DNA from: an uncultured Colwellia sp. | GTDB taxonomy: Bacteria; Pseudomonadota; Gammaproteobacteria; Enterobacterales; Alteromonadaceae | Direction of reading: 5' to 3' | Assembly (NCBI GenBank): GCA_913058395.1 | Contig: CAJXQI010000013.1 | Location: forward strand, 62,001-126,000 | DNA: 64,000 nucleotides | In this document: positions 34,060 through 48,000 of the stretch, piece by piece | How the letters are laid out: each line of letters opens with the position of its first letter | Position numbering within the stretch: position 1 is the stretch's first letter | Position numbers and translations under genes: made by a program | Notes under the pieces: generated by a model | What the model was told of the DNA's origin: nothing | Seen by the model: the letters and a program-made list of their open reading frames with translations, nothing else | Databases searched by the model: none

Positions 34060-36900
34060 ATGGCTGTAAATGAACAATTTTTAACAAAGCTTAGCGATAT
34101 TTTATCACCTAAGCAGATCATTAATGACATTACCCGACGACGTGCATTTGGCACTGATGCAAGTTTCTATCAATTAATACCACAATTGGTGTTAACGGTA
34201 GCAAGCCAAGCACAAATGCAAGCGGTGATTAGTTTAGCGGATAACTACAACGTGCCGATAACTTTTCGTGCCGCCGGTACAAGCTTATCTGGGCAAGCAA
34301 TTACTGACTCCGTGTTAGTGATGTTATCAACTGATTGGAATGGTTTTGATATTGAAGACGAAGGGTTAAAAATTCGTTTGCAGCCAGGGATTATTGGTGC
34401 TGATGCAAATCATCACTTATTACCTTATCAACGTAAATTGGGGCCTGATCCGGCCTCAATTAATACTTGTCGCATTGGCGGAATAGCAGCAAACAATGCT
34501 TCAGGTATGTGTTGTGGTGTTAGTAAAAATAGTTACTACAGCCTTGCTGATATGACAGTAATATTGGCTGATGGTACGATATTAGATAGCAGTAATGCTG
34601 ACAGTATTGCGCAATTTCGTATCTCACATGCCAGTTTACTTAGTGAACTAAACGAGCTAGCAAAAGCAGTTAAATCTGATGAAGCGCTACGTTCACTTAT
34701 CGAGCATAAATACCGATTAAAAAATACCACAGGCTATGCCATTAATGCCTTAATAGATTTCGAAGATCCTATCGATATTTTATTGCACTTAATGATCGGC
34801 TCTGAAGGCACATTAGGTTTTATTGCCAATATTACCTACCATACCGTGCCGGATTATCAGCATAAAGCCAGTGCGTTGTATTCTTTTTCTAGTGCAGCAC
34901 AAGCCTGCAAATTAGTAACAGCATTAAGCACAAGCCCTGTTGAAGCTGTTGAATTAATGGATCAACGAGCAATAAATTCGGTAAAAGGTAAAGCAGGACT
35001 TCCTGATCGCTTCTGCGACTTGCCAGACGAAACCACAGCACTGCTAATTGAAACACGCGCTGAGTCAGCAACAGAACTTACTCAAAACATCGTCGAAATT
35101 GAACAGTTAATTGCATCATATCAACCTGTTGAAGCAATTGATTTTACCACCGACACCACCTTGTGTTCACAACTTTGGGATATTCGAAAAGCGACATTTC
35201 CAGCCGTAGGTGCCGTTCGAGAAACTGGTACTACCGTTATTATTGAAGATGTTTCATTTCCCATTGATAAACTGGCCGAAGGTATTGTTAGGTTACACAA
35301 ACTATTTGATGAATTTCATTATCACGAAGCCATTATATTTGGTCATGCATTGGCGGGTAACCTGCACTTTGTATTTACCCAGTCTTTCGATGATGAAAAA
35401 GAAATTCAACGCTATGACCAATTCATGCATGAAGTGGCAAATTTAGTCGCAGTAGAATTTAAAGGCTCGTTAAAAGCAGAACACGGCACAGGCCGAAATA
35501 TGGCACCTTTCGTTGAGTTGGAGTGGGGACAGCAAGCCTATCAAGTGATGAAAAGCCTCAAAAGCATTATTGACCCAAATAATACCTTAAACCCTGGGGT
35601 AATTTTAAATGATGATAAGAATGCCCACATCAAGCATTTAAAATTAATGCCGCATGCTGACCCTATTATCGATAAATGCATCGAATGTGGTTTTTGCGAG
35701 CCGGTTTGTCCTTCAAAAGAATTTAGCTTAACGCCAAGGCATCGCATCGCCTTATGGCGACGTATTCAGCAACTTGAACAAGCAAAAACCTTATCTGACT
35801 CAGAACAAAACGAATTAAAAGAACTCAACAAAAACTACCAACACTTAGGTATTGATAGCTGTGCTGCTACCGGCATGTGTGCTCAACGTTGCCCTGTTGG
35901 TATTAACACCGGTGATTTAATTCGACAGTTACGCAGTGAAAAGTTAGGCAGTACCGGTAAGCTCATCGCAAAATGGTCGGCCAATCATTTTGCGGCGGTT
36001 AGCGCTTCTGCCGCCACCGCATTTAAAATTAATGGCTTGGTGACTACGGCTTTAGGAGATGAAACCGTCGATAAAATAGGTGTCGGTTTACATAACATCA
36101 GTGGTAAACGCTTACCGCTTTGGCACGCAAAATGGCCAACTAAAGCACGTAAAGCGGTTAAGAAAGTAAAGCCGACAAGCATTGAAACCATAACGCCTGC
36201 AGGTAAGCCTGTTATTTATTTTGCCAGTTGTGCCAGCCGCACTATGGGGCCAAATGCCAGTAATAAAGAGCAAAGAAGTTTAACCGAAGTTTCAGCCGCT
36301 GTGTTAGAAAAAGCAGGCTTTGACGTTATTTACCCAGGCAGTGTTAACCAGCTTTGCTGTGGCCTACCGTTTCACAGTAAAGGTGCAGCTGATATTGCCA
36401 AAGACAAAGGTAACGAGCTGATCACGCAATTAACGGCACTAAGTAATAACGGTGAAATTCCAATCGTGTTTGATACTAGCCCGTGTAATTTAAGGATTAA
36501 AGAATTAGGGACGCAGCTGAAAATTTATGAACTAACCGATTTTTGCGCACAGTTTGTCGTTGAGCATTTAACCATAGTGCCAAAAACAACACCTGTAGCC
36601 TTACATATTACCTGTAGCTCAAGAAAAGCGGGTATTGCTGACAGCTTACGTAAAATCGCTCAAATTTGTGCTACTGAAGTTATCGAACCATTAGGAATAG
36701 AATGTTGTGGTTTCGCCGGTGACAAAGGTTTTACTATGCCAGCGCTAAATGAAAGTGCCCTTTCGCCACTGAAAGCACAAATATTCGACCCAACAACACA
36801 AGGCTATAGTAATAGTAGAACCTGTGAAATTGGCTTGTCGAAAAATAGTGGTATTGACTATCAATCTCTGATTTATTTACTTGATGAAGTGAGTCAGTAA
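34060..36900 (+). CDS. dld: FAD/Fe-S D-lactate dehydrogenase (Dld-II type)
   Basis: A 946-residue fusion: FAD-binding PCMH domain (about 35-260), FAD-oxidase C-terminal domain (to about 520), two ferredoxin-type clusters (CIECGFCEPVCP near 540, CAATGMCAQRCP near 602) and two CCG domains (CCGLPF near 765, CCGFAG near 881). It oxidises D-lactate and feeds electrons to the quinone pool. The layout matches the Shewanella Dld-II enzyme, a single-chain relative of GlcDEF. The pairing with lldP supports lactate over glycolate. Confidence 0.9.
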   Translation: MAVNEQFLTKLSDILSPKQIINDITRRRAFGTDASFYQLIPQLVLTVASQAQMQAVISLADNYNVPITFRAAGTSLSGQAITDSVLVMLSTDWNGFDIEDEGLKIRLQPGIIGADANHHLLPYQRKLGPDPASINTCRIGGIAANNASGMCCGVSKNSYYSLADMTVILADGTILDSSNADSIAQFRISHASLLSELNELAKAVKSDEALRSLIEHKYRLKNTTGYAINALIDFEDPIDILLHLMIGSEGTLGFIANITYHTVPDYQHKASALYSFSSAAQACKLVTALSTSPVEAVELMDQRAINSVKGKAGLPDRFCDLPDETTALLIETRAESATELTQNIVEIEQLIASYQPVEAIDFTTDTTLCSQLWDIRKATFPAVGAVRETGTTVIIEDVSFPIDKLAEGIVRLHKLFDEFHYHEAIIFGHALAGNLHFVFTQSFDDEKEIQRYDQFMHEVANLVAVEFKGSLKAEHGTGRNMAPFVELEWGQQAYQVMKSLKSIIDPNNTLNPGVILNDDKNAHIKHLKLMPHADPIIDKCIECGFCEPVCPSKEFSLTPRHRIALWRRIQQLEQAKTLSDSEQNELKELNKNYQHLGIDSCAATGMCAQRCPVGINTGDLIRQLRSEKLGSTGKLIAKWSANHFAAVSASAATAFKINGLVTTALGDETVDKIGVGLHNISGKRLPLWHAKWPTKARKAVKKVKPTSIETITPAGKPVIYFASCASRTMGPNASNKEQRSLTEVSAAVLEKAGFDVIYPGSVNQLCCGLPFHSKGAADIAKDKGNELITQLTALSNNGEIPIVFDTSPCNLRIKELGTQLKIYELTDFCAQFVVEHLTIVPKTTPVALHITCSSRKAGIADSLRKIAQICATEVIEPLGIECCGFAGDKGFTMPALNESALSPLKAQIFDPTTQGYSNSRTCEIGLSKNSGIDYQSLIYLLDEVSQ

Positions 36901-36931
36901 GGAAGCGTTCATCAGAAGAACTTAAAAGCAA

Positions 36932-36954
36932 AAAGCCTACAACTAGTAGGCTTT
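36932..36954. terminator. Bidirectional terminator between dld and the TetR gene
   Basis: AAAGCCTAC pairs with GTAGGCTTT around a 5-base loop, with A-rich sequence before and T-rich sequence after, so it can act on both converging genes. Confidence 0.88.
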
Positions 36955-36987
36955 CTTTGTATCTTCATTTTACTGACTCTAGCATGA

Positions 36988-37530
36988 TTAACTTACCAGT
37001 AACTGCTCAGCCGCATTTTCAAATACGTTATTATCTTCAATAGCAATACTGATCATCATTGCGCCTTCAAGCAGCGATATAGTTTTAATTGCTTGCTGCT
37101 TAGCTGCTAAGGCATCATCAGTATTTATCGATAAATAAGCTTGTTCAAGCCATGCCAAGTTCTTATTAAAAAAACGTTTAATTTCAGCGCGAACAAGCTC
37201 AGGTAAAACATCAGACTCTGCCCCCAACAAGCCGCATAAACACATTTTTTTATCTTGATATAATGCTTGTCTAAATTGCTCAATATAAATGCTAACAGGA
37301 TTTTTTCCTGCAGCTAGATGTGCGTTAGGCTCTCCTAAAGCACTAATAAAGTCATCAGTATATTGTTTGGCAAGCTCTGCACCTAAGTCCGCTTTCGTCG
37401 GGAAATGATAATGCACACTTGCACTTTTTATCCCAACATCTTTAGCTAATTCTCTAAAGCTAAAGTTGTTATAACCACCCTCACGCACCTTGTTTTGTGC
37501 TATTTGTAGAAGCTCTTGTTTTTTCGTCAT
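36988..37530 (-). CDS. TetR-family transcriptional repressor
   Basis: 180 residues from the ATG at 37530, chosen for AAGGGCAAG upstream and because TetR proteins begin close to the helix-turn-helix; the frame extends to 37593. The HTH is at about residues 20-50 (FRELAKDVGIKSASVHYHF). It is divergent from the FAD oxidoreductase. A palindrome overlaps its own -35 region, which points to autoregulation. The C-terminal part resembles the AcrR/YxaF type. Confidence 0.86.
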   Translation of the reverse strand: MTKKQELLQIAQNKVREGGYNNFSFRELAKDVGIKSASVHYHFPTKADLGAELAKQYTDDFISALGEPNAHLAAGKNPVSIYIEQFRQALYQDKKMCLCGLLGAESDVLPELVRAEIKRFFNKNLAWLEQAYLSINTDDALAAKQQAIKTISLLEGAMMISIAIEDNNVFENAAEQLLVS

Positions 37531-37591
37531 AAAACTTGCCCTTAATTGCTTAAGCCAATTATCTATGACTAGAAATGGCTTGACAAGAAAC

Positions 37592-37624
37592 ATTATACAC
37601 CTAAAACTCTCTACCGATAGGTAG
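37592..37624 (-). promoter_or_regulatory. Divergent promoter region with TetR-type palindrome CTACCGATAGGTAG
   Basis: The palindrome (37611-37624) sits between the TetR gene and the FAD oxidoreductase gene. On the minus strand a TATAAT -10 box (37592-37597) lies so that the palindrome covers the -35 position of the TetR gene. A second, imperfect copy is upstream of the GST gene. Assignment of the TetR protein as the binder is inference. Confidence 0.5.
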
Positions 37625-37653
37625 ACAACTTAATTTAGGTAATAAGACATAAA

Positions 37654-38733
37654 ATGCACAGCTCAAATATTATTATAGGTGGTGGGTTATCAGGGCTTTT
37701 AACCGCTTGGAGATTACAGCAACAAAACTTACCCTATATTTTGCTTGAAGCTAAAGCGGAGTTAGGTGGACGCATTTTTGGTGTGCAAGATCAGCAGTCA
37801 AAGCACTATCATGATTTAGGCCCTACTTGGGTTTTTCCACACCAGCATAATATCCAAAACTTGCTGACAGAACTTGGCCTAACTTACTTTGAACAATACA
37901 CCCAAGGTGATGCTTTATTCCAAAAGCAAAATAATGTAGAGATAATTCAAACGGTCGGAGCTGGCGCGATGACTACGTATCGCGTACAAGGTGGTATGAC
38001 GGCACTTATTGAGACAATTTATCGTAAACTCAATACAGAAAACATAAAAGCAAGCCACGCCGTAACAAATATTAGGCAGAAAGATGGCCACTGGGTTATC
38101 ACTGCTCAACACAACAACACGCAGATAAATTTCGCAGCTGAACATTTAGTTTTGGCACTACCACCTCGCATGATAGCTCAACATTTAACGCCACAGCATT
38201 GGGCTTCTCCTTCACTGCAAAGTGCTTTTAAGCAGGTACCAACATGGATGGCTGCACAAGCAAAATTTATTGCAACTTACGCCAGTCCTTTTTGGCGAGA
38301 AAGAGGATTATCAGGCCAAGCATTCAGCCAACAAGGGCCCATGCAAGAAATGCATGATGCTAGTGCTGATAACTCCCCTCCTTATGCGTTATTTGGCTTT
38401 ATAGGAATTCCAGCTCAAAACCGTGCTCAATACAGCGAGTCACAAATTAAACAAGCTTGTATAAACCAATTGCAGCAATTGTATGGTGAGCAAGCCAAAA
38501 ATGCGCAAACAACACTACTTAAAGACTGGGCGTTCGATGAGTATGTCACCACTAAGCAAGACTGCCGTGAAGCGCCAAGTCACCCTAACTTTAATATTAT
38601 TGAACATATAAATGAGCTAGAAGAGAAAAATATCTACTTGGCTGCTAGCGAGTTTTCAGCAGACGATGCCGGATACCTTGAAGGTGCTGTTTGCGCTGTT
38701 AAGCAAGTTATAGCTAAATTAATTACTAATTAA
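37654..38733 (+). CDS. FAD-dependent amine oxidase-type oxidoreductase
   Basis: A 359-residue flavoprotein. The N-terminal dinucleotide fold is IIIGGGLSGLLTAWRL with the ELGGRIFG motif of amine oxidases; the C-terminal block SADDAGYLEGAVCAV is the second FAD contact. The length is short for a monoamine oxidase (usually 430 or more), so a compact relative. The substrate is unknown. It is controlled with, and divergent from, the TetR gene. Confidence 0.8.
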   Translation: MHSSNIIIGGGLSGLLTAWRLQQQNLPYILLEAKAELGGRIFGVQDQQSKHYHDLGPTWVFPHQHNIQNLLTELGLTYFEQYTQGDALFQKQNNVEIIQTVGAGAMTTYRVQGGMTALIETIYRKLNTENIKASHAVTNIRQKDGHWVITAQHNNTQINFAAEHLVLALPPRMIAQHLTPQHWASPSLQSAFKQVPTWMAAQAKFIATYASPFWRERGLSGQAFSQQGPMQEMHDASADNSPPYALFGFIGIPAQNRAQYSESQIKQACINQLQQLYGEQAKNAQTTLLKDWAFDEYVTTKQDCREAPSHPNFNIIEHINELEEKNIYLAASEFSADDAGYLEGAVCAVKQVIAKLITN

Positions 38734-38845
38734 ATAATTTGTAAGCTATTAATTTATTTACTTTAAAATTCATCCACTCAAAATACTGATGCTTTAGAAA
38801 GCAAAAAACATTGACTATATTAGCATCTCGCACTAACCTACCTAC

Positions 38846-38859
38846 CTACCAGTAGATAG
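38846..38859. promoter_or_regulatory. Imperfect copy of the TetR-type palindrome upstream of GST
   Basis: CTACCAGTAGATAG matches the site at 37611-37624 at 11 of 14 positions and lies 95 bases before the GST start. It suggests that GST and the cupin gene belong to the same regulon as the FAD oxidoreductase. Confidence 0.4.
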
Positions 38860-38953
38860 TTAATCATATTAGATGAATTAACACTAAAGCTTTGTTTGAG
38901 CAAACAGTAGAAAACATTGTTCAAACATCATTAACCAATAAAGTGAGAGCACT

Positions 38954-39574
38954 ATGAAAATTTATGACGTTGAGAACTTCCCTAATCCACTGCGGGTTCG
39001 TATTGCATTAGCTGAAAAAAATGCCACTGACAAAGCAACATTTATTCCCGTAGACTTAATGAATGGAGAACATCGTACTGCCGAATTTTTAGCGAAAAAC
39101 CCCGCAGGTGGTGTGCCAGTTTTAGAGCTTGAAGACGGCACTTTTATCGCTGAATGTTCAGCTATTATTGAATATATTGATCATGAATTTTCTGGTCCAT
39201 CACTAACGGGTAACACGGCTAAAGATCGTGCTGTTATTAGCATGATGCAACGCCGTGCAGAGTCGATGGTACTAGATGCAGTCGCTACTTATTTTCATCA
39301 TGCAACAGATGGATTAGGCCCAGCACTTGAAACATATCAAAATAAAGCCTGGGGTCAAAAACAATTAGAAAAAGCATTATCAGGTTTAGCTTACTTCGAT
39401 ACGGTATTAGCAAAAAATAGTTATTTAGCGGGAGATGAGTTTACTGTTGCCGACATCACTTTGCATTCTGGTCTAGTGTTTGCGGGGTTTGCACAAATTA
39501 TTGTCCCAAGTGAATTAACTAACTTAATTGCTTGGCAAGCACGTATTGCTAACCGCCCTAGTATTGCCGCGTAA
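38954..39574 (+). CDS. Glutathione S-transferase family protein
   Basis: A 206-residue protein with a thioredoxin-like N-terminal domain (cis-Pro in GGVPVLELEDG, then ECSAIIEYID) and a helical C-terminal domain. It begins NFPNPLRVRIAL. GTGAGAG precedes the ATG. It shares an operon with the cupin gene 65 bases on. Probable detoxification role; substrate unknown. Confidence 0.88.
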   Translation: MKIYDVENFPNPLRVRIALAEKNATDKATFIPVDLMNGEHRTAEFLAKNPAGGVPVLELEDGTFIAECSAIIEYIDHEFSGPSLTGNTAKDRAVISMMQRRAESMVLDAVATYFHHATDGLGPALETYQNKAWGQKQLEKALSGLAYFDTVLAKNSYLAGDEFTVADITLHSGLVFAGFAQIIVPSELTNLIAWQARIANRPSIAA

Positions 39575-39639
39575 CTTATACTTAACTACGACTTAGTTAA
39601 CACTTACTAAAACTGAAAAATTGAAGATTAGGAAATCAC

Positions 39640-40332
39640 ATGAAAATTGCCGCCGACTTTAGTAAACGAGAAATAGTACACAGCACTACCTTACCTTGGG
39701 TTGCATCCCCCATGGTAGGTGTAGACAGACGTGCACTTGAGCGTGTTGGCGGTGAAGTTGCCAGAGCAACCAGCATTGTTCGTTATGCGCCGGGTAGTGC
39801 CTTTTCACCACATGTACATACCGGTGGGGAGGAATTTATTGTTCTTGACGGTGTATTTCAAGATGAACATGGTGACTTCCCTGCTGGTTCCTATATTCGT
39901 AATCCGCCAGAGTCTAGCCACACACCTAGCTCAGAAGCTGGCTGTGTAATTATGGTTAAACTATGGCAATTCCAACCGGAAGACAGAACACACGTTCGTT
40001 TACAAATGAACGCTATGGGCAAGGTTGCAATGCCTAAGCATAATGGCATTGAAATAACGCCGTTATACAAAGATGCTATTGAAGAAGTGTCACTATTACA
40101 CTTCGATGCCGATGCAAGCTTGAACATTTCACCACTAGGCGGCGCTGAACTTTTTGTGCTTGAAGGTGATATTCGCGAACATCAAGACCAACTAACAAAG
40201 CACAGCTGGGCACGGTTACCGATTAATGAAAGCATCAGTATAAAAGCAGGGAATAATGGCGCAAAAATTTGGCTGAAAACTGGTCACTTAACTGACGTAG
40301 AAAACCAAATAGCGCGAGTACAACAGGCATAG
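39640..40332 (+). CDS. Double-cupin protein, ChrR-like
   Basis: A 230-residue protein with two cupin domains. The first has metal-ligand residues in FSPHVHTGGEEFIVL and SSHTP, as in the cupin part of the ChrR anti-sigma factor. The usual N-terminal zinc anti-sigma domain is absent and no ECF sigma gene lies beside it. It may be an oxygen- or peroxide-related enzyme or a sensor. It is last in the GST unit and is followed by a strong terminator. Confidence 0.78.
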   Translation: MKIAADFSKREIVHSTTLPWVASPMVGVDRRALERVGGEVARATSIVRYAPGSAFSPHVHTGGEEFIVLDGVFQDEHGDFPAGSYIRNPPESSHTPSSEAGCVIMVKLWQFQPEDRTHVRLQMNAMGKVAMPKHNGIEITPLYKDAIEEVSLLHFDADASLNISPLGGAELFVLEGDIREHQDQLTKHSWARLPINESISIKAGNNGAKIWLKTGHLTDVENQIARVQQA

Positions 40333-40370
40333 TGATTAGCAGCTGAAATATAATGCCAAATTTCAGGCAA

Positions 40371-40397
40371 AAAAACCGACATTGATTGTCGGTTTTT
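40371..40397 (+). terminator. Terminator after the GST-cupin unit
   Basis: AAAAACCGACA pairs with TGTCGGTTTTT around a 5-base loop. The same hairpin, with 2-3 changes, lies at 44979-45003 behind a tRNA-Leu fragment, so this copy probably began as a tRNA terminator. Confidence 0.88.
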
Positions 40398-40450
40398 ATT
40401 GTTATATCCTTTAAAAATAAAGGAATAATACAACTAGTACTAGATTTAAA

Positions 40451-40470
40451 ACCGACATGTCTTGCGACAG
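40451..40470 (-). repeat. Decayed tRNA-Leu remnant (left copy)
   Basis: These 20 bases match 45059-45078, in the T-arm to variable-arm part of the tRNA-Leu fragment, at 19 of 20 positions. The flanking acceptor region has the same length but has lost most matches. Together with the terminator at 40371 it forms a decayed copy of the tRNA 3' end. Confidence 0.7.
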
Positions 40471-40510
40471 AAAGTTCTAAAAAGAATGAGAATTAAAAAT
40501 GGGCTCTTAA

Positions 40511-40771
40511 TTAAGTACGATAAAGCACTTTAATAACATGCCAGCCAAACTTAGTTTTAACGAGATGGGGCTCTAATATTGCGCCACTAAATGCTACTTT
40601 ATCAAACTGAGGTACCATTTGACCTCGTTTAAACTCGCCCAAATCTCCCCCTTTCTTACCTGAAGGACATGACGAATATTTTTTAGCCAACGTTTGAAAC
40701 TTACCTCCCTTACCTAGCTGCTTAATAATATCTTCTGCAATTTTTTTGTGCTTAACCAGTATGTGAAGCAA
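40511..40771 (-). pseudogene. 5'-truncated copy of ppiC
   Basis: 86 codons that match the intact copy at 44519-44797 with two protein changes (K for E and G for A) and few silent base changes. The first seven codons, including the ATG, and the promoter are missing; upstream sequence is unrelated. A TTG now stands where an Ala codon lies in the intact gene, with no ribosome binding site, so expression is doubtful. It marks the left edge of a duplication that bounds the accessory block. Confidence 0.8.
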
Positions 40772-40981
40772 TTATGAGTAACTATCCTAGTTAATTTCAA
40801 TCGGTATATCTTAACTAGGCTCCTGGTCATATGTTTATCACATTAACCCTGCCATTAATCTAATCATTATATTGATGGCTCCCTCCCTTTTTCATCATGC
40901 AACTCAAAAAATTATAAATTTTATAATAATTTTACACCGCTAGAAGTATGCAAGAATGCATTTGTAAAAATCGAGGTGTAT

Positions 40982-41254
40982 ATGAAAAAGCATATGATTA
41001 AAAAAGATGATAAAGAAAAAACCTTCTTCACCCATTTAGCACTTGAGTTGGTAGAAGACTCTTTAGATTCGTTAAGACGCGATAATATTCATTTACTCAC
41101 TGCTTACTTCGAATATTTACAAAGACTGTGTGAATACCTCGCTATTACTTTTGATGCCCCCAAATTCATTGGAATTAATAGCGAGGCTTTCTCCGTATTG
41201 CAACATATCCACAAGCGTTTACTCATCTTGACCAAAAATTGCAACAAAGAATAA
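40982..41254 (+). CDS. Small helical protein of unknown function
   Basis: About 90 residues from the ATG at 40982 (GAGGTG upstream). Charged N terminus, then amphipathic helices, one terminal Cys. No signal peptide and no recognised family. It is the first gene of the accessory block and faces the same way as the winged-helix and EAL-like genes. Confidence 0.6.
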   Translation: MKKHMIKKDDKEKTFFTHLALELVEDSLDSLRRDNIHLLTAYFEYLQRLCEYLAITFDAPKFIGINSEAFSVLQHIHKRLLILTKNCNKE

Positions 41255-41382
41255 TTACTGGGGGCAGTAATACAACAGAACAAAAAAAACTCCACGATAT
41301 AAGAGAGTTGTACTGTTGAGATCAAGGATGATCTAATTCAATTTAAATTAATTTACTCGGTGAAAAAGTGTATTAACAGTTT

Positions 41383-41802
41383 GTGGAAATTATAGGTATG
41401 GATTTGCAAAGAGCTAACGAAAAAACGAAAACATGCAAAACTTATTGCAGTCAGTGTGAAGTCAAAGAGTCTTTGGTATTTAGCAGCAATATATCATTAT
41501 GTAGTATTACCCAGTCTGTTATCTTTGACGATAAAAGAATAAAACTTTCAAATAGAGCATTGAGAGTACTTTGTGCCCTTTTACAATGTAAAAGCTCCCC
41601 TGTCAGCTTTAATTATTTACATGAATATGGTTGGCCTGACAGTTTAGTGGTGAGGAATAACCTCACCGTTACAATATCAGAGATAAGAACAACTCTTAGA
41701 CATACTAATATTAAAATAGAGAGCATCAGAGGTTTTGGTTATGCTCTAACCTCATCAAATGATGAAATAGAGCGAATTATGGATGCAGAATGTTTAACTT
41801 AA
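41383..41802 (+). CDS. Winged-helix (OmpR/PhoB-type) regulator with N-terminal CX3CX2C motif
   Basis: A 139-residue protein with GTG start, or ATG at 41398. An N-terminal Cys cluster CKTYCSQC (CX3CX2C, a possible metal or Fe-S site) is followed by a Trans_reg_C-type winged helix (about 60-125: NRALRVLCALLQ, EYGWPDSLVVRNNLTVTISEI, here given as EYGWPDSLVV and NLTVTISEIRTTL, and RGFGYAL). There is no receiver domain. It has a paralogue on the other strand at 42834 with the same Cys motif. The EAL-like gene starts inside its last codons. Confidence 0.78.
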   Translation: MEIIGMDLQRANEKTKTCKTYCSQCEVKESLVFSSNISLCSITQSVIFDDKRIKLSNRALRVLCALLQCKSSPVSFNYLHEYGWPDSLVVRNNLTVTISEIRTTLRHTNIKIESIRGFGYALTSSNDEIERIMDAECLT

Positions 41803-42503
41803 ATAATATTGATTTCACCAGTGTAATCTGGGGGAGAGTGGTTATTTCACCTCGCATAGAGAAGATTATCACCCCACCATACACCATTGAAAATATAGAA
41901 GTTTTATGCTCAGTAGCTAATCAAGATTCAAGCATCGCTGCCTACAGCTTTTTTCAACATTTAACAGCGAGTGAACATGTGGAGTTGTTTAAATTGATTT
42001 TAACAGCCGTATTAGCAGAGCCCTCTCTAAAAAGCTATACCGTTAGCCTAAACACGCCTATACAAGTTATACGTAAGCTTGCTGAGCTCCTTCCATTGTT
42101 GTTGAGTCACAATGAGCAAAAGATAGCTTTTGAGTTATTAGAAAGTGATATCCAAGAATTAGGCGCGTACGAATACGGGTTACTTGACGAAATAAACAAG
42201 ATTTCAAACATCAGCTTATGGTTAGATGATTTTGGCAATAATCAGTCAAATTTCGACATAGTTATCTCAAAAAGAGTGAAGTTCAGTGCAATCAAAGTTG
42301 CGAAAGAACTCTTTTGGGGGCTTTTAGACTCAGACATAAACTTCCTAAAAAGTTTATTAACTTACTTAAATCAAGAACACCTCCTTATAGTTGAAGGGGT
42401 AGAAACGAAAAAACAGGTAGAGTTTATATCGAATATTAAAGGTGTAAAAATTCAAGGGTTTTATTTTAATCCACAGCTGGAAACAAGTATTGGAGTCAAA
42501 TAA
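41790..42503 (+). CDS. Compact EAL-like protein, probably diverged phosphodiesterase or c-di-GMP sensor
   Basis: A 237-residue protein with an EAL pattern but no other domain: EVL in place of EAL (NIEVLCSV), NTP in VSLNTP, FELLESD, LDDFG (intact), VKFSAIK where LKID is usual, EGVET (intact) and GVKIQGFYF. Most metal and base residues remain, but the D of LKID is Ser. It overlaps the winged-helix gene by 13 bases and the next gene by one, so the three are co-translated. Activity cannot be decided from sequence. Confidence 0.78.
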   Translation: MFNLNNIDFTSVIWGRVVISPRIEKIITPPYTIENIEVLCSVANQDSSIAAYSFFQHLTASEHVELFKLILTAVLAEPSLKSYTVSLNTPIQVIRKLAELLPLLLSHNEQKIAFELLESDIQELGAYEYGLLDEINKISNISLWLDDFGNNQSNFDIVISKRVKFSAIKVAKELFWGLLDSDINFLKSLLTYLNQEHLLIVEGVETKKQVEFISNIKGVKIQGFYFNPQLETSIGVK

Positions 42504-42769
42504 TGGATAAACTCACTCATGCTCAAATAATTTCTGAATTTGAAATAGCAACACAATACATATCCAGTGAAGTAGTTCCTATCGATATTAATTTATTGAA
42601 AAATATAGCAATAACGTTTACAAAAAAAGATGAGTACTTCCTCGATGTATGCATGAGATTAATGCAGATGTTAACCGAAGAGGTAAAACTAAAAAGTATT
42701 AGTCAACAGAAACAAATTAATACACTTACAGAAGAAGAAAAATACTATTTAAGTTCTATTTATGAATAA
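42503..42769 (+). CDS. Small protein of unknown function downstream of the EAL-like gene
   Basis: An 88-residue, mostly helical, acidic protein with no signal peptide or motif. The ATG overlaps the EAL-like stop (TAATG). It ends at a strong hairpin. No family recognised; co-translation suggests a partner of the EAL-like protein. Confidence 0.6.
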   Translation: MDKLTHAQIISEFEIATQYISSEVVPIDINLLKNIAITFTKKDEYFLDVCMRLMQMLTEEVKLKSISQQKQINTLTEEEKYYLSSIYE

Positions 42770-42770
42770 A

Positions 42771-42810
42771 GCTGAAAATAAGCTCTTAAGTGTAGGATGC
42801 TATTTTCAGC
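42771..42810. terminator. Hairpin between the two convergent regulatory units
   Basis: GCTGAAAATA pairs perfectly with TATTTTCAGC around a 20-base loop, between the 88-residue gene and the second winged-helix gene, which converge. Likely a shared terminator. Confidence 0.65.
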
Positions 42811-42833
42811 TTCATTAAAGTACTGCAATTATT

Positions 42834-43235
42834 CTATAACTTTAAGCAATAACCTTCTTTTCGGTGGTTTTCAATATCAATTGACGTTCCTCGTAACAAA
42901 ATTCGTAAATCATAAATAGCAACATTTAAGTTATTTTTTACAATAGTCGAATCAGGCCAAACATATTGAATTAAATAATCTGTTGGTAATATTGTACTTT
43001 CCTGTCGCGTTAAAGCACAAATCAACCTATAGCCCTGAGAACTAATTTTGCGATGCTCAGCATGAATAATAAAAGTACCACGCTTTTCTCCTTTATTAAT
43101 GTTTGCACTTGCAAGTTGTTCATATGGAAACAAAGGACAGTCCCGACATCTGTTATAGCAAGGGGTAAGTTCAACTTCATTGGAGGAGGTAGCGGTATGA
43201 CTAAAATTATCTAACAAAGTATTTAGATTATTCAT
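42834..43235 (-). CDS. Second winged-helix regulator with N-terminal CX3CX2C motif
   Basis: A 133-residue protein with the cluster CYNRCRDC (CX3CX2C, residues about 27-34) and a winged helix at about 60-130 (GYRLICALTRQ, YVWPDSTIVKNNLNVAIYDL, given as YVWPDSTIV and NLNVAIYDLRILL, and EGYCLKL). It is clearly a paralogue of the protein at 41383: same length, order, and motif spacing. It overlaps the HD-GYP stop by 8 bases, so HD-GYP and this gene form one operon. Confidence 0.78.
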   Translation of the reverse strand: MNNLNTLLDNFSHTATSSNEVELTPCYNRCRDCPLFPYEQLASANINKGEKRGTFIIHAEHRKISSQGYRLICALTRQESTILPTDYLIQYVWPDSTIVKNNLNVAIYDLRILLRGTSIDIENHRKEGYCLKL

Positions 43236-44292
43236 AAATTACTCCTTCAAAAACATCACTATCTAGTAAGAAGTTACAATCGCAATCTTCAGAAGAGGCT
43301 AAGGCAACTTGATATTTTCTTCCTCCTACTTTGGCTAAAATTTTAACGTAATCGCCATCTATTGTTTTTACATGAGTCCCGACAGGAAACTCCCTCATCA
43401 CTTCAATAAACCTAGCGACAAGACGAGGATCTAACATAGTTCCTGAAACTCTTGCTAACTCTGAAATAGCAGAATAAGAACATAAGGCACTCTTATAATT
43501 TCTGTTACGAGTTATTGCTTCATATGTGCAAACCAAGGTAAGCATCCTTGAATAGAGGTTTATATCTCGACCGGCTAACCCAGCCGGGTAACCTGTACCA
43601 TTGAAGTGCTCATGATGTGATTCAATAATTCGACTTACAATACTAGGAAATGCTTTATTTTCTTCAATAAGCTTTACACCTATTTGAGTATGGCTCAGAA
43701 CGTAATTTCTTTCTGTCACAGTCAGTTTTTCTGGTTTATCGAATGTAATAGGAAGTTTAACCATTCCTACATCATGCAGTAATGCAGCACACCCAAGACC
43801 TAATAGTTTGTCTTTTTTTATGCCTATATATTTACACAATGTTAAATAGAGTATCAGTACTCTTAATGATTTATGCGCAATGCAGGGGGATTTGATTTGA
43901 ATGGTATTTAAATAATCATAGGTTTTAGAGTCGGCTAAAACCTGAACAGTTAAATAATTAACAACCTCTTTTACCTTTTTAGAGCTCAGATAAGAGCTTG
44001 TGGTCAAGTCATTAAATATAACATTTAAGAGCTTAAATGACTTTGATAAAGTTTCTTTACCTTCATTTTCTTTATTCTTAGCCGAGACACTTTCATTGTC
44101 AATAAAGGCCGATGGGCACTGTGATTCTACAAAGGCATATTCACATGTTTTGCGTAGTTGAATTAAATGCTTTTCAGTCTCAATTACGAAAGTGTGACTT
44201 AAGAAGGGGGTATCAAGCCATTTTCTATCCAATTTAACGACTTTCATACCAATTTTTAGTTGGTTTACTGCTAATTTATTCATAGGTATCAT
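43228..44292 (-). CDS. HD-GYP phosphodiesterase with N-terminal DUF3391-like domain
   Basis: A 354-residue protein. The N-terminal domain (about 5-75) resembles DUF3391 (LKIGMKVVKLDRKW, HTFVIETEKHL). The HD-GYP domain (about 135-310) has HD in LLHDVGM, H in LSHTQIG, and SHHEHFNGTGYP, so metal ligands and GYP are intact and only the D of the usual DGSGYP is Asn. It should cut c-di-GMP. It shares an operon with the second CX3CX2C winged-helix gene. Two ATG codons lie at 44292 and 44283. Confidence 0.85.
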   Translation of the reverse strand: MIPMNKLAVNQLKIGMKVVKLDRKWLDTPFLSHTFVIETEKHLIQLRKTCEYAFVESQCPSAFIDNESVSAKNKENEGKETLSKSFKLLNVIFNDLTTSSYLSSKKVKEVVNYLTVQVLADSKTYDYLNTIQIKSPCIAHKSLRVLILYLTLCKYIGIKKDKLLGLGCAALLHDVGMVKLPITFDKPEKLTVTERNYVLSHTQIGVKLIEENKAFPSIVSRIIESHHEHFNGTGYPAGLAGRDINLYSRMLTLVCTYEAITRNRNYKSALCSYSAISELARVSGTMLDPRLVARFIEVMREFPVGTHVKTIDGDYVKILAKVGGRKYQVALASSEDCDCNFLLDSDVFEGVIYE

Positions 44293-44518
44293 ATATTCAA
44301 AATAATAAACATCGACTAGTTATAGTCGATATTAAATTTAAAATTTAAAAATTAGATACCGTCCCATTGGTAATGTATGAAATCCTTTCATTTCCACATG
44401 GTACACTGGTCTGATAACCAAAGTCAATTTTTCGAATAACGCCAATAAGAGAAAAACTTAACAGAGTAAAAATAAATTAAAATATTCATGTTCCTTACCT
44501 CTATTTTTTCGTCTTACT

Positions 44519-44797
44519 TTAAGTACGATAAAGTACTTTAATAACATGCCAGCCAAACTTAGTTTTAACGAGATGGGGCTCTAATATTGCGCCACTAAAT
44601 GCTACTTTATCAAATTGAGGTACCATTTGACCTCGTTTAAACTCGCCTAAATCTCCCCCTTTCTTACCTGAAGGACATGACGAATATTTTTTAGCTAGCG
44701 TTTGAAACTTAGCTCCCTTACCTAGCTGCTTAATAATATCTTCTGCAATTTCTTTGTGCTTAACCAGTATGTGAAGTGCGTGCGCTGTAGCTGCCAT
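44519..44797 (-). CDS. ppiC: Parvulin-type peptidyl-prolyl isomerase PpiC
   Basis: A 92-residue single-domain cytoplasmic rotamase with [25 protein letters not shown], and GWHVIKV motifs; length matches E. coli PpiC (93). AAAGG precedes the ATG. It is the intact version of the truncated copy at 40511. On the right it borders the tRNA-Leu terminator. Confidence 0.93.
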
Positions 44798-44978
44798 GTA
44801 AAAACCTTTTTAATAGCGTTTGATCACTAAACCAAAAGTGAAGAGATAAATAAAAAATATAGGGAGGTATTTTATACAAAAAATATGGTCAGGCGAAGCA
44901 AGAAGGTGATTTTTTTATACCAATAAAATTCAAAAGTAGATAATAATCTGCAATATAACATCAAACTTCAGAGACAAA

Positions 44979-45003
44979 AAAACCGACATTAGTTGTCGGT
45001 TTT
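44979..45003 (-). terminator. Terminator of the tRNA-Leu locus
   Basis: AAAACCGACA pairs with TGTCGGTTTT around a 5-base loop, followed on the minus strand by a T run. It lies 33 bases past the CCA end of the tRNA-Leu fragment and has a diverged copy at 40371-40397. Confidence 0.88.
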
Positions 45004-45036
45004 CTCTGTTATAGCCCTTTAATAATAAAGGAAGAA

Positions 45037-45096
45037 TGGTACCAGCGGTCGGACTCGAACCGACACGTCTTGCGACAGGGGATTTTGAATCCCCTG
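45037..45096 (-). tRNA. 3' fragment of tRNA-Leu(CAA), likely attachment site
   Basis: Read on the minus strand this is the 3' part of a tRNA-Leu: an anticodon arm with loop TTCAAAA (anticodon CAA), a long variable arm, a T arm with GGTTCGAGTCC and an acceptor end with encoded CCA. The 5' acceptor strand and D arm are missing, since right of 45096 the sequence no longer fits a tRNA. This is what remains when an element inserts into a tRNA 3' end. It is not a working tRNA gene. Confidence 0.88.
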
Positions 45097-45236
45097 ACCA
45101 TCAAATAAAACTTACAAATATCAACAACTTACAATATTTATTTCCTAGTATATGTAACTATTATGTATTTTATTATGTAAATATTATTTATATTTGCTAA
45201 TATAACCAACATACTATTATTAACAGTTTACTATAT

Positions 45237-46766
45237 ATGTCAGATCAACTGGATATTAATGCTAAAAAGATTGAGATCATGCAATCGATGGATGAGACCG
45301 CAATTGATTTTGCATATAAAGCGTTTAAAGAAGCCATTAAAAGATCCGAAAATAAAGAGTTAACTGAGTTCGAGTTAGCAGCAAGAAGCACACGTATATC
45401 ATCTACAGTAGTGCTTGTAAAAAACACCCCTAAAAGTAAATCATTTACCGCACAAATTAGTATTCCTAATGAGAGAGCGCCTAGAAGAATTTCTACAGGC
45501 GAAAAAAGAATTGCCAAGGCTACAACTGCTGCACTTGTAAAAGAACAAGAAATACTTACTAAAATTGAATCAGGCACAGAAGATGTGCACTCTGATCTAT
45601 CTTGGAAGGTGATCTGCGCTCGACTATGTAGGGAGCTGGATGATAAGACACAACTGGAAGTAGATAAAGGTATAGCGGAAGGTAAGAAAGCACACAGGGT
45701 AAAGCCTCAATCTAAAGTTCATAGCTCAAACATTAAGAACAAACTTAAAGATAATAAATATCTCGCTAACAAGAAGATTACTGAAGTTCAATATGCTGAT
45801 TTTGTAGATGCTTTCACAGTAAAAGAAATTCACGAAAATAGGGGGAAGGCGACAGTTCAAAATATCTATAAATCAATAAAGCTGATATTCGAATTCGCCC
45901 AAAGAAACAGAATACTTTCTGCAAACCAGATCCCCAATATTCCAGTGATTGAGTGGGTGAAAGGTGAAGAGAGACCTGTCATCGAAGAAGCAGATCTAAA
46001 GGTTATAATGACTAACTTCCAAAATTTTTATGAGAGCAGTACAACTAACTATAAAACAAGAGAGAACCGTAGGATATTTCCTTTTTATGTAGCATTGACT
46101 TCATCATGTGGTTTACGCCCAGGTGAAGAGGTGGTAGGCGTAAAATGGAGCCATTTAGCAAAAGGTAAGATTGAAATTACAAGAGAAGTTAATGAGCAAG
46201 GGAAACTGATTAAAAAGATAGAAGAAGTCGAGGTTTACTATGCTGACATAGAGCGTGGGAAGCTCTCTAATCGTACTAAAGATGGAGGACTTAAGTTAGT
46301 ACCACATTCACGTCAAATCGTAATATACAGTGAGACAGCTAAGGCAATAGAAGGTCTCTACTTCGTAAGGTACGGCATTAATAAAATACTATCTGAAATA
46401 GTAAAAGAAGCTAAAGATGATCTAATGTTCAGTGGTTCAGAAAAAAGAGATATTAACTTTGCAGATACTTTTAGTCTGTACATGGATTATCTAAAAGGTA
46501 AAATCTCAAAGCGTTACACGCAGTATTCATTGCGTCACGAGTTTATTAATTCAGAGTTACGCAAAGGTGTATTGATAAATGATGTAGCGGAACAGTGTGG
46601 TACAAGTACTAAAACAATCGAAGGATACTATAAGAAGTATAAAGCAATGCATCGTGTTGAGAGGCTTCTAAGTAATCAAGATGTAGATTACTTTATTAAG
46701 AAAACAAAAGAAGTACTAGAATCGACTAAAAAAGAGACTCCAAACCATACCCTATTTCCAACCTAG
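45237..46766 (+). CDS. Tyrosine recombinase / integrase
   Basis: A 509-residue recombinase, 140 bases from the tRNA-Leu fragment. A long N-terminal arm (about 200 residues) and core-binding region precede the catalytic domain, with Arg in CGLRPGEEV, Lys in RTKDGGLK, the box II Arg in YSLRHEF, and the nucleophile Tyr in IEGYYKKY. The first His of box II (HxLR) is Tyr and the later His/Trp is Thr (CGTST), a pattern seen in some large integrases. It probably inserted the island to its right at tRNA-Leu. Confidence 0.88.
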   Translation: MSDQLDINAKKIEIMQSMDETAIDFAYKAFKEAIKRSENKELTEFELAARSTRISSTVVLVKNTPKSKSFTAQISIPNERAPRRISTGEKRIAKATTAALVKEQEILTKIESGTEDVHSDLSWKVICARLCRELDDKTQLEVDKGIAEGKKAHRVKPQSKVHSSNIKNKLKDNKYLANKKITEVQYADFVDAFTVKEIHENRGKATVQNIYKSIKLIFEFAQRNRILSANQIPNIPVIEWVKGEERPVIEEADLKVIMTNFQNFYESSTTNYKTRENRRIFPFYVALTSSCGLRPGEEVVGVKWSHLAKGKIEITREVNEQGKLIKKIEEVEVYYADIERGKLSNRTKDGGLKLVPHSRQIVIYSETAKAIEGLYFVRYGINKILSEIVKEAKDDLMFSGSEKRDINFADTFSLYMDYLKGKISKRYTQYSLRHEFINSELRKGVLINDVAEQCGTSTKTIEGYYKKYKAMHRVERLLSNQDVDYFIKKTKEVLESTKKETPNHTLFPT

Positions 46767-47280
46767 AAAATGCATGGACAATTACATCAGTTATGCCACC
46801 AAATTGCATCAGAACTGCCAGTCATTATCATCTAACACTGTCACCTAATAACATTAACTGCAACCACTGAATAACATTAGGTTTGCCACCAATAAATATG
46901 ATCACTTGGTGCGCTTTCCTGACATTAGCTACAGGTTGTTCTTTAGTTCAAAATTAGCCAATAGCTGACATTAGCTTTTGAGTTACTGTCGGCAACTTAG
47001 GGAGCCTATAGCTGTATTCTAATTTAAATGTTTTTTCTTATTTATCCCAATAACTTTACACGAAATTTTGAGTTTGATTATTCTACCTATCTCAAAAGCG
47101 GATATTAGCATTTCCTCTGATTTACTTTGATAATCAGATCAATATACGTAAGTAAGTTTAGGATTTGTTACTCGGTTTTATGGCACCTTAGATTTAATTT
47201 ATTTGTCTCATTATTGATAGTGTTAGATCAGAAAATAGATTCGTCATTGCGCAGCTAAATACGTTTATGATTTGTTAATG
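46767..47280. other. Non-coding stretch after the integrase, with short repeats
   Basis: No credible gene. It holds short direct repeats (AATAACATTA twice near 46849 and 46870, TGCCACCAA twice), an inverted pair ACCTAAT/ATTAGGT (46843-46849, 46876-46882), and one copy of a 54-base repeat (46955-47008) whose partner is at 56599-56652. It looks like worn mobile-element debris. Confidence 0.5.
46955..47008 (+). repeat. Copy 1 of a 54-base island repeat
   Basis: It matches 56599-56652 at 41 of 54 positions, including the exact block TTAGCTTTTGAGTTA. Both copies are in intergenic DNA and in the same orientation, 9.6 kb apart. Confidence 0.6.
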
Positions 47281-48000
47281 CTAACTGACGCCATTAGAGC
47301 GAATGTTATTTACATTTCTATTCATTAAATGACGCAGCGCATAACGGAAAAGAACCTTTTTAATCCCTGTAAGGTTACTACCGTGCTTTAAGTAAAAGTC
47401 ATCTGGCTGCTCATATGTACCGAAGTCGTCTGCAATGCCGTCACTTTGTATATAAGTATCTTCTCCTGTCCAGTCAACATCAGGACTTGCAAGGCATTTA
47501 GTTGCAATACCAAAGCCTGAAAAGCTCTCGTTATCCTCAGCAAAACGACTCTGAATTTGTTTGAGATAAGGTTTATCAATGATATAACCTTCCAAGTTGA
47601 TCCAACGATCCTTGTAATAAATCTCAACCCAACTATGAATAATACGCTTTGGCGCAAAGAAAAATAAATGGTTAGGGATCGCACCACGTTGTAATTCATT
47701 GTAAATTGTAAAACCATGGAACCGTGTTGGCACACCAACAGCGCGTAATAATGCAATTAACAAAGTACCTTTAGTATTACACTGTCCATAACCATCTTTA
47801 AATACTTGGCTTGCTGGTATTCGGTCATCTGCGTTATAGCCAAAACTAATTTCATCTCGTACATAGTTATAAATTTCGCCAATGGCATCGTATTGGGATA
47901 AATCTCGCCAATGTCGTTGCTCAATTAAACTTTGGATTTGCGGATGGTTAAAATCCAACATTGGGGTATGTTTTAATAAATTTTTTGATAATTTAGTCAC
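47281..48000 (-). CDS. Transglutaminase-like cysteine protease-fold protein
   Basis: A 239-residue protein starting at GTG (GGGGAG 5 bases upstream). The transglutaminase core has the catalytic Cys in GYGQCNTKG, His in IIHSWVEIY and acidic residue in INLEGYI. No signal peptide. It overlaps the small membrane protein gene by 8 bases. Family members are peptidases, amidases or cross-linking enzymes; the substrate is unknown. Confidence 0.8.
   Translation of the reverse strand: MTKLSKNLLKHTPMLDFNHPQIQSLIEQRHWRDLSQYDAIGEIYNYVRDEISFGYNADDRIPASQVFKDGYGQCNTKGTLLIALLRAVGVPTRFHGFTIYNELQRGAIPNHLFFFAPKRIIHSWVEIYYKDRWINLEGYIIDKPYLKQIQSRFAEDNESFSGFGIATKCLASPDVDWTGEDTYIQSDGIADDFGTYEQPDDFYLKHGSNLTGIKKVLFRYALRHLMNRNVNNIRSNGVS

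What the first reader, a model, noticed from the sequence alone, without database searches (positions are those of the whole stretch)
40976..44292. Accessory cassette with paired CX3CX2C winged-helix regulators plus EAL and HD-GYP proteins
Two paralogous winged-helix proteins (41383 and 42834), both with an N-terminal CX3CX2C cluster and no receiver domain, are each co-translated with a c-di-GMP-type protein: an EAL-like one on the plus strand and an HD-GYP one on the minus strand. The two units converge on a shared hairpin. A metal- or redox-sensing DNA-binding protein that pairs with a phosphodiesterase fits a sensory unit, perhaps making or reading c-di-GMP for its own control. I know no named system with this make-up.
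Basis: partly seen in the sequence, partly recalled or inferred. Interest (0 to 1): 0.72.

Follow-up and report, generated by a model that had tools for sequence, protein, structure and literature searches.

The report
Four-cysteine regulators paired with c-di-GMP proteins
A compact bacterial gene cassette pairs two unusual four-cysteine DNA-binding proteins with two altered c-di-GMP proteins, and some relatives sit in front of surface-pilus genes, so it looks like a self-controlling switch for attachment of a make-up that my searches did not find described.

Summary
Two 31%-identical winged-helix proteins with CX3CX2C (41383+, 42834-) overlap an EAL gene and an HD-GYP gene; small ORFs lie at 40976 and 42503. 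The same six-gene cassette is in four other gammaproteobacterial records (three Colwelliaceae, one unplaced). A winged helix directly followed by EAL is in five Glaciecola/Idiomarina loci, three of them followed by chaperone, pilin-like and usher-like genes. A fourth cysteine (C64), inside the DNA-binding domain, is kept in 20 of 20 aligned proteins. The HD-GYP protein has lost residues that PmGH needs for catalysis; the EAL protein is partly degenerate. Upstream of the five non-cassette operons lie tandem 9-bp AT repeats; in three genomes the 3-copy array (up to 2 mismatches) is found nowhere else. Both cassette leaders carry conserved GGA-loop hairpins of CsrA type. Best reading: an autoregulated, metal- or redox-gated transcription factor tuned by a co-translated EAL (or dead HD-GYP) partner, as in BluR/BluF or trigger phosphodiesterases, ancestrally controlling pili. 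Cofactor, DNA binding and c-di-GMP binding are untested. New variant of a known kind.

The parts
40912..40930 (+). AT-rich near-palindrome TTATAAATTTTATAATAAT upstream of the first ORF; candidate operator
   Evidence: Identical in 4 of 5 cassettes, two changes in L044. The 20-nt form with up to 2 mismatches occurs once in the 4.39-Mb genome, here; the reversed control pattern also gave one match
40976..41254 (+). Small ORF (92 aa), first gene of the plus unit; no known family, structure not predicted
   Evidence: Homologues in 5 of 5 cassettes, 32-82% identity; no Pfam or NCBIfam match for it
41255..41335 (+). Conserved leader with three hairpins; the last has an ANGGAN hexaloop (GATC-AAGGAT-GATC)
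   Evidence: hexaloop form of CsrA/RsmE sites as in passages of PMC7652899
41383..41802 (+). Winged-helix protein 1 (139 aa), C18-X3-C22-X2-C25 plus C64, no receiver domain
   Evidence: Pfam, alignment A9, AlphaFold/Foldseek
41790..42503 (+). EAL-domain protein (237 aa), partly degenerate
   Evidence: Pfam, residue table, PDB alignment
42503..42769 (+). Small predicted all-helical protein (88 aa), third gene of the plus operon
   Evidence: no Pfam match over cut-off; AlphaFold helices, Foldseek PDB no match at E<=0.001
42770..42811 (.). Convergent inverted repeat, probable two-way terminator
   Evidence: Sequence; seen in the window and L042
42834..43235 (-). Winged-helix protein 2 (133 aa), same four Cys, no receiver domain
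   Evidence: Pfam, A9
43228..44292 (-). DUF3391 + HD-GYP protein (354 aa) with altered metal site
   Evidence: Pfam, PmGH mapping
44357..44391 (-). Leader of the minus unit: GGA-loop hairpin (ATGAAAGGATTTCAT), then TACC-AATGGGAC-GGTA hairpin
   Evidence: Conserved and covarying in 5 cassettes (coordinates)
44398..44427 (-). Candidate sigma-70 promoter of the minus unit, read by eye
   Evidence: TTGA of the -35 aligned in 5 of 5; clearest in L044
40511..40768 (-). Flanking truncated ppiC copy (left direct repeat)
   Evidence: 97% identical to 44519-44776
44519..44797 (-). Flanking ppiC gene (right direct repeat); similar DNA also adjoins the cassette in L042

Best explanation
The cassette is a compact regulatory switch. 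A one-component, PhoB/ToxR-fold winged-helix protein with a four-cysteine site (CX3CX2C plus a Cys in the first helix of the DNA-binding domain) binds AT-rich elements upstream of its own operon and sets its transcription (inferred). The four cysteines hold a metal or Fe-S cluster that gates DNA binding (inferred). Its co-translated EAL partner, and on the other arm a catalytically dead HD-GYP partner, bind the winged-helix protein and tune it, in a c-di-GMP-dependent way for the EAL arm, much as BluF tunes BluR or PdeR tunes MlrA (inferred). In Glaciecola the output is the adjoining chaperone/pilin/usher-like operon, so the ancestral job is attachment (inferred from linkage). In the Colwellia-type cassette the pilus genes are not there and the output is the cassette itself with its two small proteins (inferred). 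CsrA probably adds post-transcriptional control through GGA-loop hairpins in both leaders (inferred). Shown here: gene order, overlaps, conservation, residue losses, where the upstream elements do and do not occur, hairpin conservation (covariation clear in the minus leader only), co-occurrence with the pilus genes.
For: Six-gene cassette in the same order in 5 records; in the tree wHTH1 and wHTH2 form separate groups with the same inner pairs. wHTH-EAL-small gene in L048, L049, L054 by profile, wHTH-EAL in L050 and L052. Four Cys: C22, C25, C64 in 20/20, C18 in 19/20, against CX3CX2C in 0 of 13 usable controls. Foldseek top matches include RpaA, SaeR, ToxR and PhoB DNA-binding domains. HD-GYP: H189>K, K225>M, D183>S/A, E185>C/S/N, D305>C, D308>E in 5/5; Ala changes of H189, K225, D183 and D308 essentially abolish PmGH activity (PMC4159591, passages). 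Tandem 9-bp repeats upstream of 5 of 5 non-cassette wHTH-EAL operons (at most 1 of 300 shuffles as good) and not of the 4 winged-helix genes tested that lack a directly adjoining EAL; 3-copy array with up to 2 mismatches in 3 of 8 genomes (G088, G140, G104) and only there, control 0. In 13 genomes of that genus the usher-like gene and the EAL gene are in the same 3. ANGGAN hexaloop 5/5 in the plus leader, covarying GGA hairpin in the minus leader; csrA present.
Against: No contact between the proteins and no DNA or ligand binding has been tested. Low model confidence around the Cys cluster (pLDDT about 55), and no coordinates were seen, so its geometry is unknown. The EAL domain keeps N, E, D, K, E, Q in 10/10 and the first E and second D in 9/10, so it could be a plain phosphodiesterase. 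The usher-like gene is absent from G000, G027, G873, G874 and G875 (the L045 record could not be searched), and one intact pilus cluster (L070) has no winged-helix/EAL genes in the 15 kb held. The cassettes' own element is not significantly 9-bp periodic (25 to 131 of 300 shuffles as good), the reversed control of its genome search also gave one match, and the L048 repeat is a different 9-mer, so one shared operator is not proved. Solo copies (L047, L051, L053) have no c-di-GMP neighbour. Plus-leader covariation is weak.
Confidence: 0.45

Rival explanations
1. Plain local phosphodiesterase control: the winged-helix proteins merely express an active EAL (and HD-GYP) enzyme that lowers c-di-GMP for the cell; no direct protein partnership.
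For: EAL residues N, E, D, K, E, Q are conserved in 10/10 and the first E and second D in 9/10; in the plasmid collection the listed best matches are MrkJ-type phosphodiesterases, 26% identity.
Against: HD-GYP site degraded in 5/5, EAL lacks ExLxR Arg and KxD Asp in 10/10, and single members lose the first Glu or second Asp; gene overlap with the DNA-binding protein on both arms of all 5 cassettes.
Confidence: 0.2
2. The four cysteines are a structural zinc knuckle that stabilises a stand-alone winged helix lacking a receiver domain, with no sensing role.
For: Four Cys with short spacing are a common Zn arrangement (recalled); invariance fits structure as well as sensing.
Against: Nothing here separates the two; the low-confidence model gives no geometry.
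Confidence: 0.35
3. The 9-bp arrays are slippage-prone promoter repeats giving phase-variable pilus expression, or an A/T-rich UP element, rather than an operator of the winged-helix protein.
For: Copy number differs between genomes (3.1 to 7.9 copies); perfect repeats are what slippage makes; L048 has a different 9-mer.
Against: The same unit TTTTATAAN is in two Glaciecola (L049, L054) and Idiomarina (L052), and with up to 2 mismatches its 3-copy array is only at this operon in those genomes; Colwellia-type cassettes keep a short, to my reading related, element in 5 of 5.
Confidence: 0.2
4. Accessory cargo in decay: a mobile fragment without a coherent function in Colwellia-type hosts.
For: Sits beside ppiC repeats and a tRNA-gene fragment; L043 keeps wHTH1 without an EAL ORF; decayed EAL and usher relatives occur in the Glaciecola group.
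Against: The six frames are open in all 5 records with 28-92% protein identity to the window's genes in the alignments, and leaders and upstream element are conserved.
Confidence: 0.07

Closest known systems
BluR/BluF-ycgZ-ymgAB of Escherichia coli (PMC3509220, abstract and passages)
   Same: Neighbouring DNA-binding protein, degenerate EAL protein and genes for small proteins kept as a unit; there the EAL protein directly antagonises the regulator
   Different: BluR is MerR-like, BluF carries a BLUF photoreceptor; here a four-Cys PhoB-fold protein, no BLUF domain, no Pfam match of the small proteins to YmgB, and a second arm with HD-GYP
Trigger phosphodiesterases PdeL and PdeR (PMC5052742, passages)
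   Same: DNA-binding function coupled to an EAL domain, autoregulation
   Different: PdeL is one LuxR-EAL chain and an active enzyme; here separate co-translated chains, a different DNA-binding fold, four Cys, altered EAL
MrkHIJ control of type 3 fimbriae in Klebsiella (PMC3161979, search listing with start of abstract; MrkJ as plasmid hit)
   Same: EAL protein and transcription factor linked to chaperone-usher pilus genes
   Different: MrkH is a PilZ protein (recalled); Pfam shows no PilZ domain here; EAL only 26% identical to MrkJ
Roc system of Pseudomonas (PMC12051241, passages)
   Same: EAL protein plus transcription factors controlling chaperone-usher pili
   Different: Roc uses histidine kinases and receiver domains; none in the cassette. 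A Cys-rich winged-helix variant does sit beside such genes in L055
OmpR/PhoB-type winged-helix regulators, including receiver-less ones of the ToxR/CadC kind
   Same: Winged-helix fold
   Different: No receiver domain, N-terminal Cys cluster plus Cys in the first helix of the domain

Membership tests
OmpR/PhoB response regulators | N-terminal receiver domain | tested here: not met
   Only Trans_reg_C is found in both proteins
OmpR/PhoB response regulators | Trans_reg_C winged-helix domain | tested here: met
   36.8 and 34.4 bits against a cut-off of 26.2; Foldseek for the first
Active HD-GYP phosphodiesterase | Metal ligands E185, H189, H221, D222, H250, H276, H277, D305 and residues K225, D183 of PmGH | tested here: not met
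   H221, D222, H250, H276, H277 kept; E185, H189, D305, K225, D183 replaced in 5/5
Active EAL phosphodiesterase | E (ExL), N, E, DD, K, E, Q; ExLxR Arg; KxD Asp | tested here: inconclusive
   N, E, first D, K, E, Q 10/10; first E and second D 9/10; Arg 0/10; KxD Asp 0/10
BluR/BluF module | BLUF domain and MerR-like regulator | tested here: not met
   Neither found by Pfam in the window's six proteins
BluR/BluF module | YmgB-like small proteins | tested here: not met
   No YmgB match at E<=1 in 9 + 5 members; no Foldseek match at E<=0.001 for the 88-aa protein; the 92-aa protein was not modelled
Trigger phosphodiesterase | EAL protein binds and controls a transcription factor depending on c-di-GMP | not testable with these tools
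   Needs binding assays
Chaperone-usher pilus regulator (Mrk/Roc kind) | Encoded with and co-occurring with the pilus genes | tested here: inconclusive
   Linked in L049, L050, L054 and co-occurring in 3 of 13 genomes; usher-like gene absent from the window genome
CsrA target mRNA | ANGGAN or GGA in a hairpin loop of the leader | tested here: met
   ANGGAN hexaloop 5/5 in the plus leader, A(A/T)GGAT at the loop 5/5 in the minus leader; CsrA binding itself not tested
Four-Cys metal or Fe-S regulator | Bound metal or cluster | not testable with these tools
   Only the four conserved Cys are shown

The most novel reading that the evidence does not exclude
A previously undescribed family of one-component regulators in which an Fe-S (or redox-metal) site bridges an N-terminal CX3CX2C and the first helix of a PhoB-type winged helix, and in which the regulator is read out by two different c-di-GMP-family proteins turned into adaptors (an EAL and a dead HD-GYP), joining redox or oxygen state, c-di-GMP and CsrA on one small adhesion switch.
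Probability: 0.25. Interest if true: 0.75.

Novelty: new variant of a known kind. Interest (0 to 1): 0.52.

Why it matters
The targets of EAL and HD-GYP proteins that have lost catalytic residues are often hard to guess. Here each is co-translated with one candidate target, a small DNA-binding protein, so the partner question can be tested directly. If the four cysteines hold a redox-sensitive cluster, this would be a direct link from redox state to c-di-GMP control of attachment, and a new cofactor site in the very common PhoB-type winged helix. The upstream 9-bp array, found only at this operon in three genomes, gives a ready DNA target.

Tried and rejected
Plasmid search with the winged-helix protein: one weak Caballeronia hit. 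Rfam on 40700-44600: 7 matches at E<=5, none near its gathering score. A wider regulon with the 20-nt element, up to 2 mismatches, or the 3-copy array: no other site. Usher-like gene in G000, G027, G873, G874, G875: none. The 88-aa protein as a YmgB relative: no Pfam or fold support. The 88-aa and 92-aa proteins as relatives of each other: no support (probability 0.47%). Defence-system reading: no PADLOC match at E<=0.01. Family of G189 searched with the L055 winged-helix variant: only itself, 1 of 121. I first read the minus-leader hairpin as an exact ANGGAN hexaloop; the pair table shows a 5-nt loop with the same letters, so I claim only a GGA loop. Plus-leader covariation is weak against shuffles (45 to 64 of 500 as high); the minus leader is clearer on three measures (2 of 500) but not on the other two (69 and 188 of 500), and five sequences are few.

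Partial counts: one search scored about 10 candidates per genome, and G104 and G140, which carry members, are not among its 5 of 394, so that is a lower bound; of the 5, G330 is a 220-aa response-regulator-length frame and G189 the L055 variant. One search found only the own genome among 369. One search used one peptide pattern: 51 stretches, 13 relatives, collection of 84,980 genomes. In one search, 17 control proteins were put in, 16 gave a row and 3 of those were short pieces.
Full report
WHAT IS THERE. The six ORFs stand as described: 40976+ (92 aa), 41383+ winged helix (139 aa), 41790+ EAL (237 aa), 42503+ (88 aa), 42834- winged helix (133 aa), 43228- DUF3391-HD-GYP (354 aa). The plus genes 41383-41790-42503 and the minus genes 43228-42834 overlap. 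NCBIfam gives no match over a cut-off for either winged-helix protein, and Pfam, NCBIfam and PADLOC name neither the 92-aa nor the 88-aa protein over a cut-off.

CONSERVATION. One protein search of 147 family genomes gave 13 with a match at E<=1e-5; 5 of these (G000, G027, G088, G104, G140) carry members, the other 8 are winged-helix domains in longer frames. One pattern scan of 84,980 genomes gave 13 loci. The whole six-gene cassette is in the window, L042 (uncultured Colwellia, 89.9% DNA identity over 40831-44804), L044 (Colwellia sp. 12G3), L045 (an unplaced gammaproteobacterial MAG) and L046 (Thalassotalea loyana), always in the same order. Blastn of window 36001-48000 against these loci shows no shared flank except the ppiC region with L042. 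A winged helix directly followed by EAL also occurs in Glaciecola (L048, L049, L050, L054) and Idiomarina (L052); the small third gene follows in L048, L049 and L054 by profile, and L052 has a 98-aa ORF in that place which the profile did not find and which aligns at 20%. No HD-GYP partner was found by profile in the flanks held there. Winged-helix genes without a directly adjoining partner: L043 (contig-cut; only 48 nt like the start of EAL follow), L047, L051, L053 and the second copy of L048. In a tree of 20 winged-helix proteins wHTH1 and wHTH2 form separate groups with the same inner pairs (window with L042, L045 with L046), so the cassette seems to be inherited as a unit; deep branches are weak.

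FOUR CYSTEINES. In 20 aligned proteins C22, C25 and C64 are invariant and C18 is missing only in L043, whose start is cut off. C64 lies in the first helix of the DNA-binding domain (helix 57-68 of the model). Of 13 usable control Trans_reg_C proteins none has CX3CX2C and 1 has Cys at the fourth position. A related protein in another family of the order (L055) has CX3C-X4-CX2C plus the helix Cys (read by eye) and sits beside what look like LuxR-type response regulators, a receiver-EAL protein (Pfam) and a hybrid kinase. Four conserved Cys make a metal or Fe-S site likely, but nothing here tells which; model confidence there is about 55.

CATALYTIC RESIDUES. Mapping on PmGH by the alignment (checked by script): H221, D222, H250, H276, H277 and the GYP motif are kept in 5 of 5; H189 is K, K225 is M, D183 is S/A, E185 is C/S/N, D305 is C and D308 is E in 5 of 5. 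In PmGH, Ala changes of H189, K225, D183 and D308 essentially abolished activity, while those of E185 and D305 left some (PMC4159591, passages). I predict no c-di-GMP phosphodiesterase activity. The EAL protein keeps N, E, D, K, E, Q in 10 of 10 and the first E and second D in 9 of 10, but has no Arg in ExLxR and no Asp after the catalytic Lys (KxD) in 10 of 10 (the weight of the Arg is from passages of PMC12943098; that the KxD Asp matters is recalled). It may bind c-di-GMP and be slow or inactive, or be active.

DNA ELEMENTS. The five cassettes share a near-palindrome TTATAAATTTTATAA about 35-80 nt upstream of the first ORF (start codons uncertain), with one changed letter in L044. The 20-nt form with up to two mismatches occurs once in the genome; the reversed control also gives one match, so this alone proves little. 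Upstream of the five non-cassette winged-helix/EAL operons there are tandem 9-bp repeats (L048 7.9 copies, L049 5.4, L050 3.1, L052 3.2, L054 3.3), as good in at most 1 of 300 dinucleotide shuffles each, against 68 to 292 of 300 for the four winged-helix genes tested without a directly adjoining EAL and 25 to 131 of 300 for the cassettes. The array (TTTTATAAN)3 with up to two mismatches was found in 3 of 8 genomes (G088, G140, G104) and there only upstream of this operon; the reversed control gave none. The L048 repeat is a different 9-mer. I read the arrays as operators of the winged-helix protein; slippage repeats are a rival.

LEADERS. Between the 92-aa ORF and wHTH1 the five cassettes share three hairpins. 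The loop of the last is ANGGAN in 5 of 5, the form described for CsrA/RsmE sites (PMC7652899, passages). Upstream of HD-GYP a hairpin with A(A/T)GGAT in or at its loop is followed by a TACC/GGTA-type hairpin with loop AATGGGAN; five cells show changes on both sides, reached by 2 of 500 shuffles. The plus leader is less clear. The genome has csrA.

OUTPUT. In L049, L050 and L054 the winged-helix/EAL genes are followed by a chaperone (PapD_N over its cut-off in L050, the one tested), pilin-like ORFs and an 870-900 aa usher-like protein (no usher family among the Pfam matches of the L050 copy). Within that genus, 3 of 13 genomes have the usher-like gene and the same 3 have the EAL gene (1 in 286 if independent, which relatives are not). 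One of the three has another intact pilus cluster without winged-helix/EAL genes in the 15 kb held (L070). The usher-like gene is absent from the window genome, G027, G873 (L042), G874 (L043) and G875 (L044); the L045 record could not be searched. So the pilus link is ancestral or lineage-specific, and the cassette's output in Colwellia-type hosts is open.

MECHANISM AND PLACE. The nearest working analogues are BluR/BluF with its small proteins, where a degenerate EAL protein antagonises the neighbouring regulator (PMC3509220, abstract and passages), and PdeL/PdeR (PMC5052742, passages). It is not a member of either by the features tested. Literature: in open-access PMC, searches matched 14, 341, 1, 44 and 288 papers and listed 14, 8, 1, 10 and 8; none of the listed titles or abstract starts describes this set. 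Unlisted and subscription papers were not seen.

Noticed in passing
window 45038-45100 (-) and 40440-40470: A 3' part of a tRNA gene (anticodon read by eye as CAA, Leu) lies beside an integrase-like ORF; a decayed partial copy lies left of the cassette. ARAGORN finds no whole tRNA in the window.
   Followed up: partly
window 45237-46766: 509-aa ORF that looks by eye like a tyrosine recombinase; no Pfam match over a cut-off.
   Followed up: no
window 40511-40768 and 44519-44797: ppiC fragment and ppiC gene, 97% identical over 258 nt, flank the cassette as direct repeats, so recombination could delete it.
   Followed up: partly
L055 6432-6809: Winged-helix variant with CX3C-X4-CX2C beside a Roc-like set of regulators in another family of the order.
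   Followed up: partly
L045 644-967, 6361-6927, 10513-11667: ORFs that look by eye like transposases and a resolvase near the cassette in a MAG contig.
   Followed up: no
L071 5189-7658 (G876 contig 4): EAL and small gene, an usher-like fragment with stops, and another CX3CX2C winged-helix gene: a decayed pilus locus.
   Followed up: partly
window 9703-11016: 437-aa ORF with a weak match (E 9.2e-11) to the cassette HD-GYP profile.
   Followed up: no
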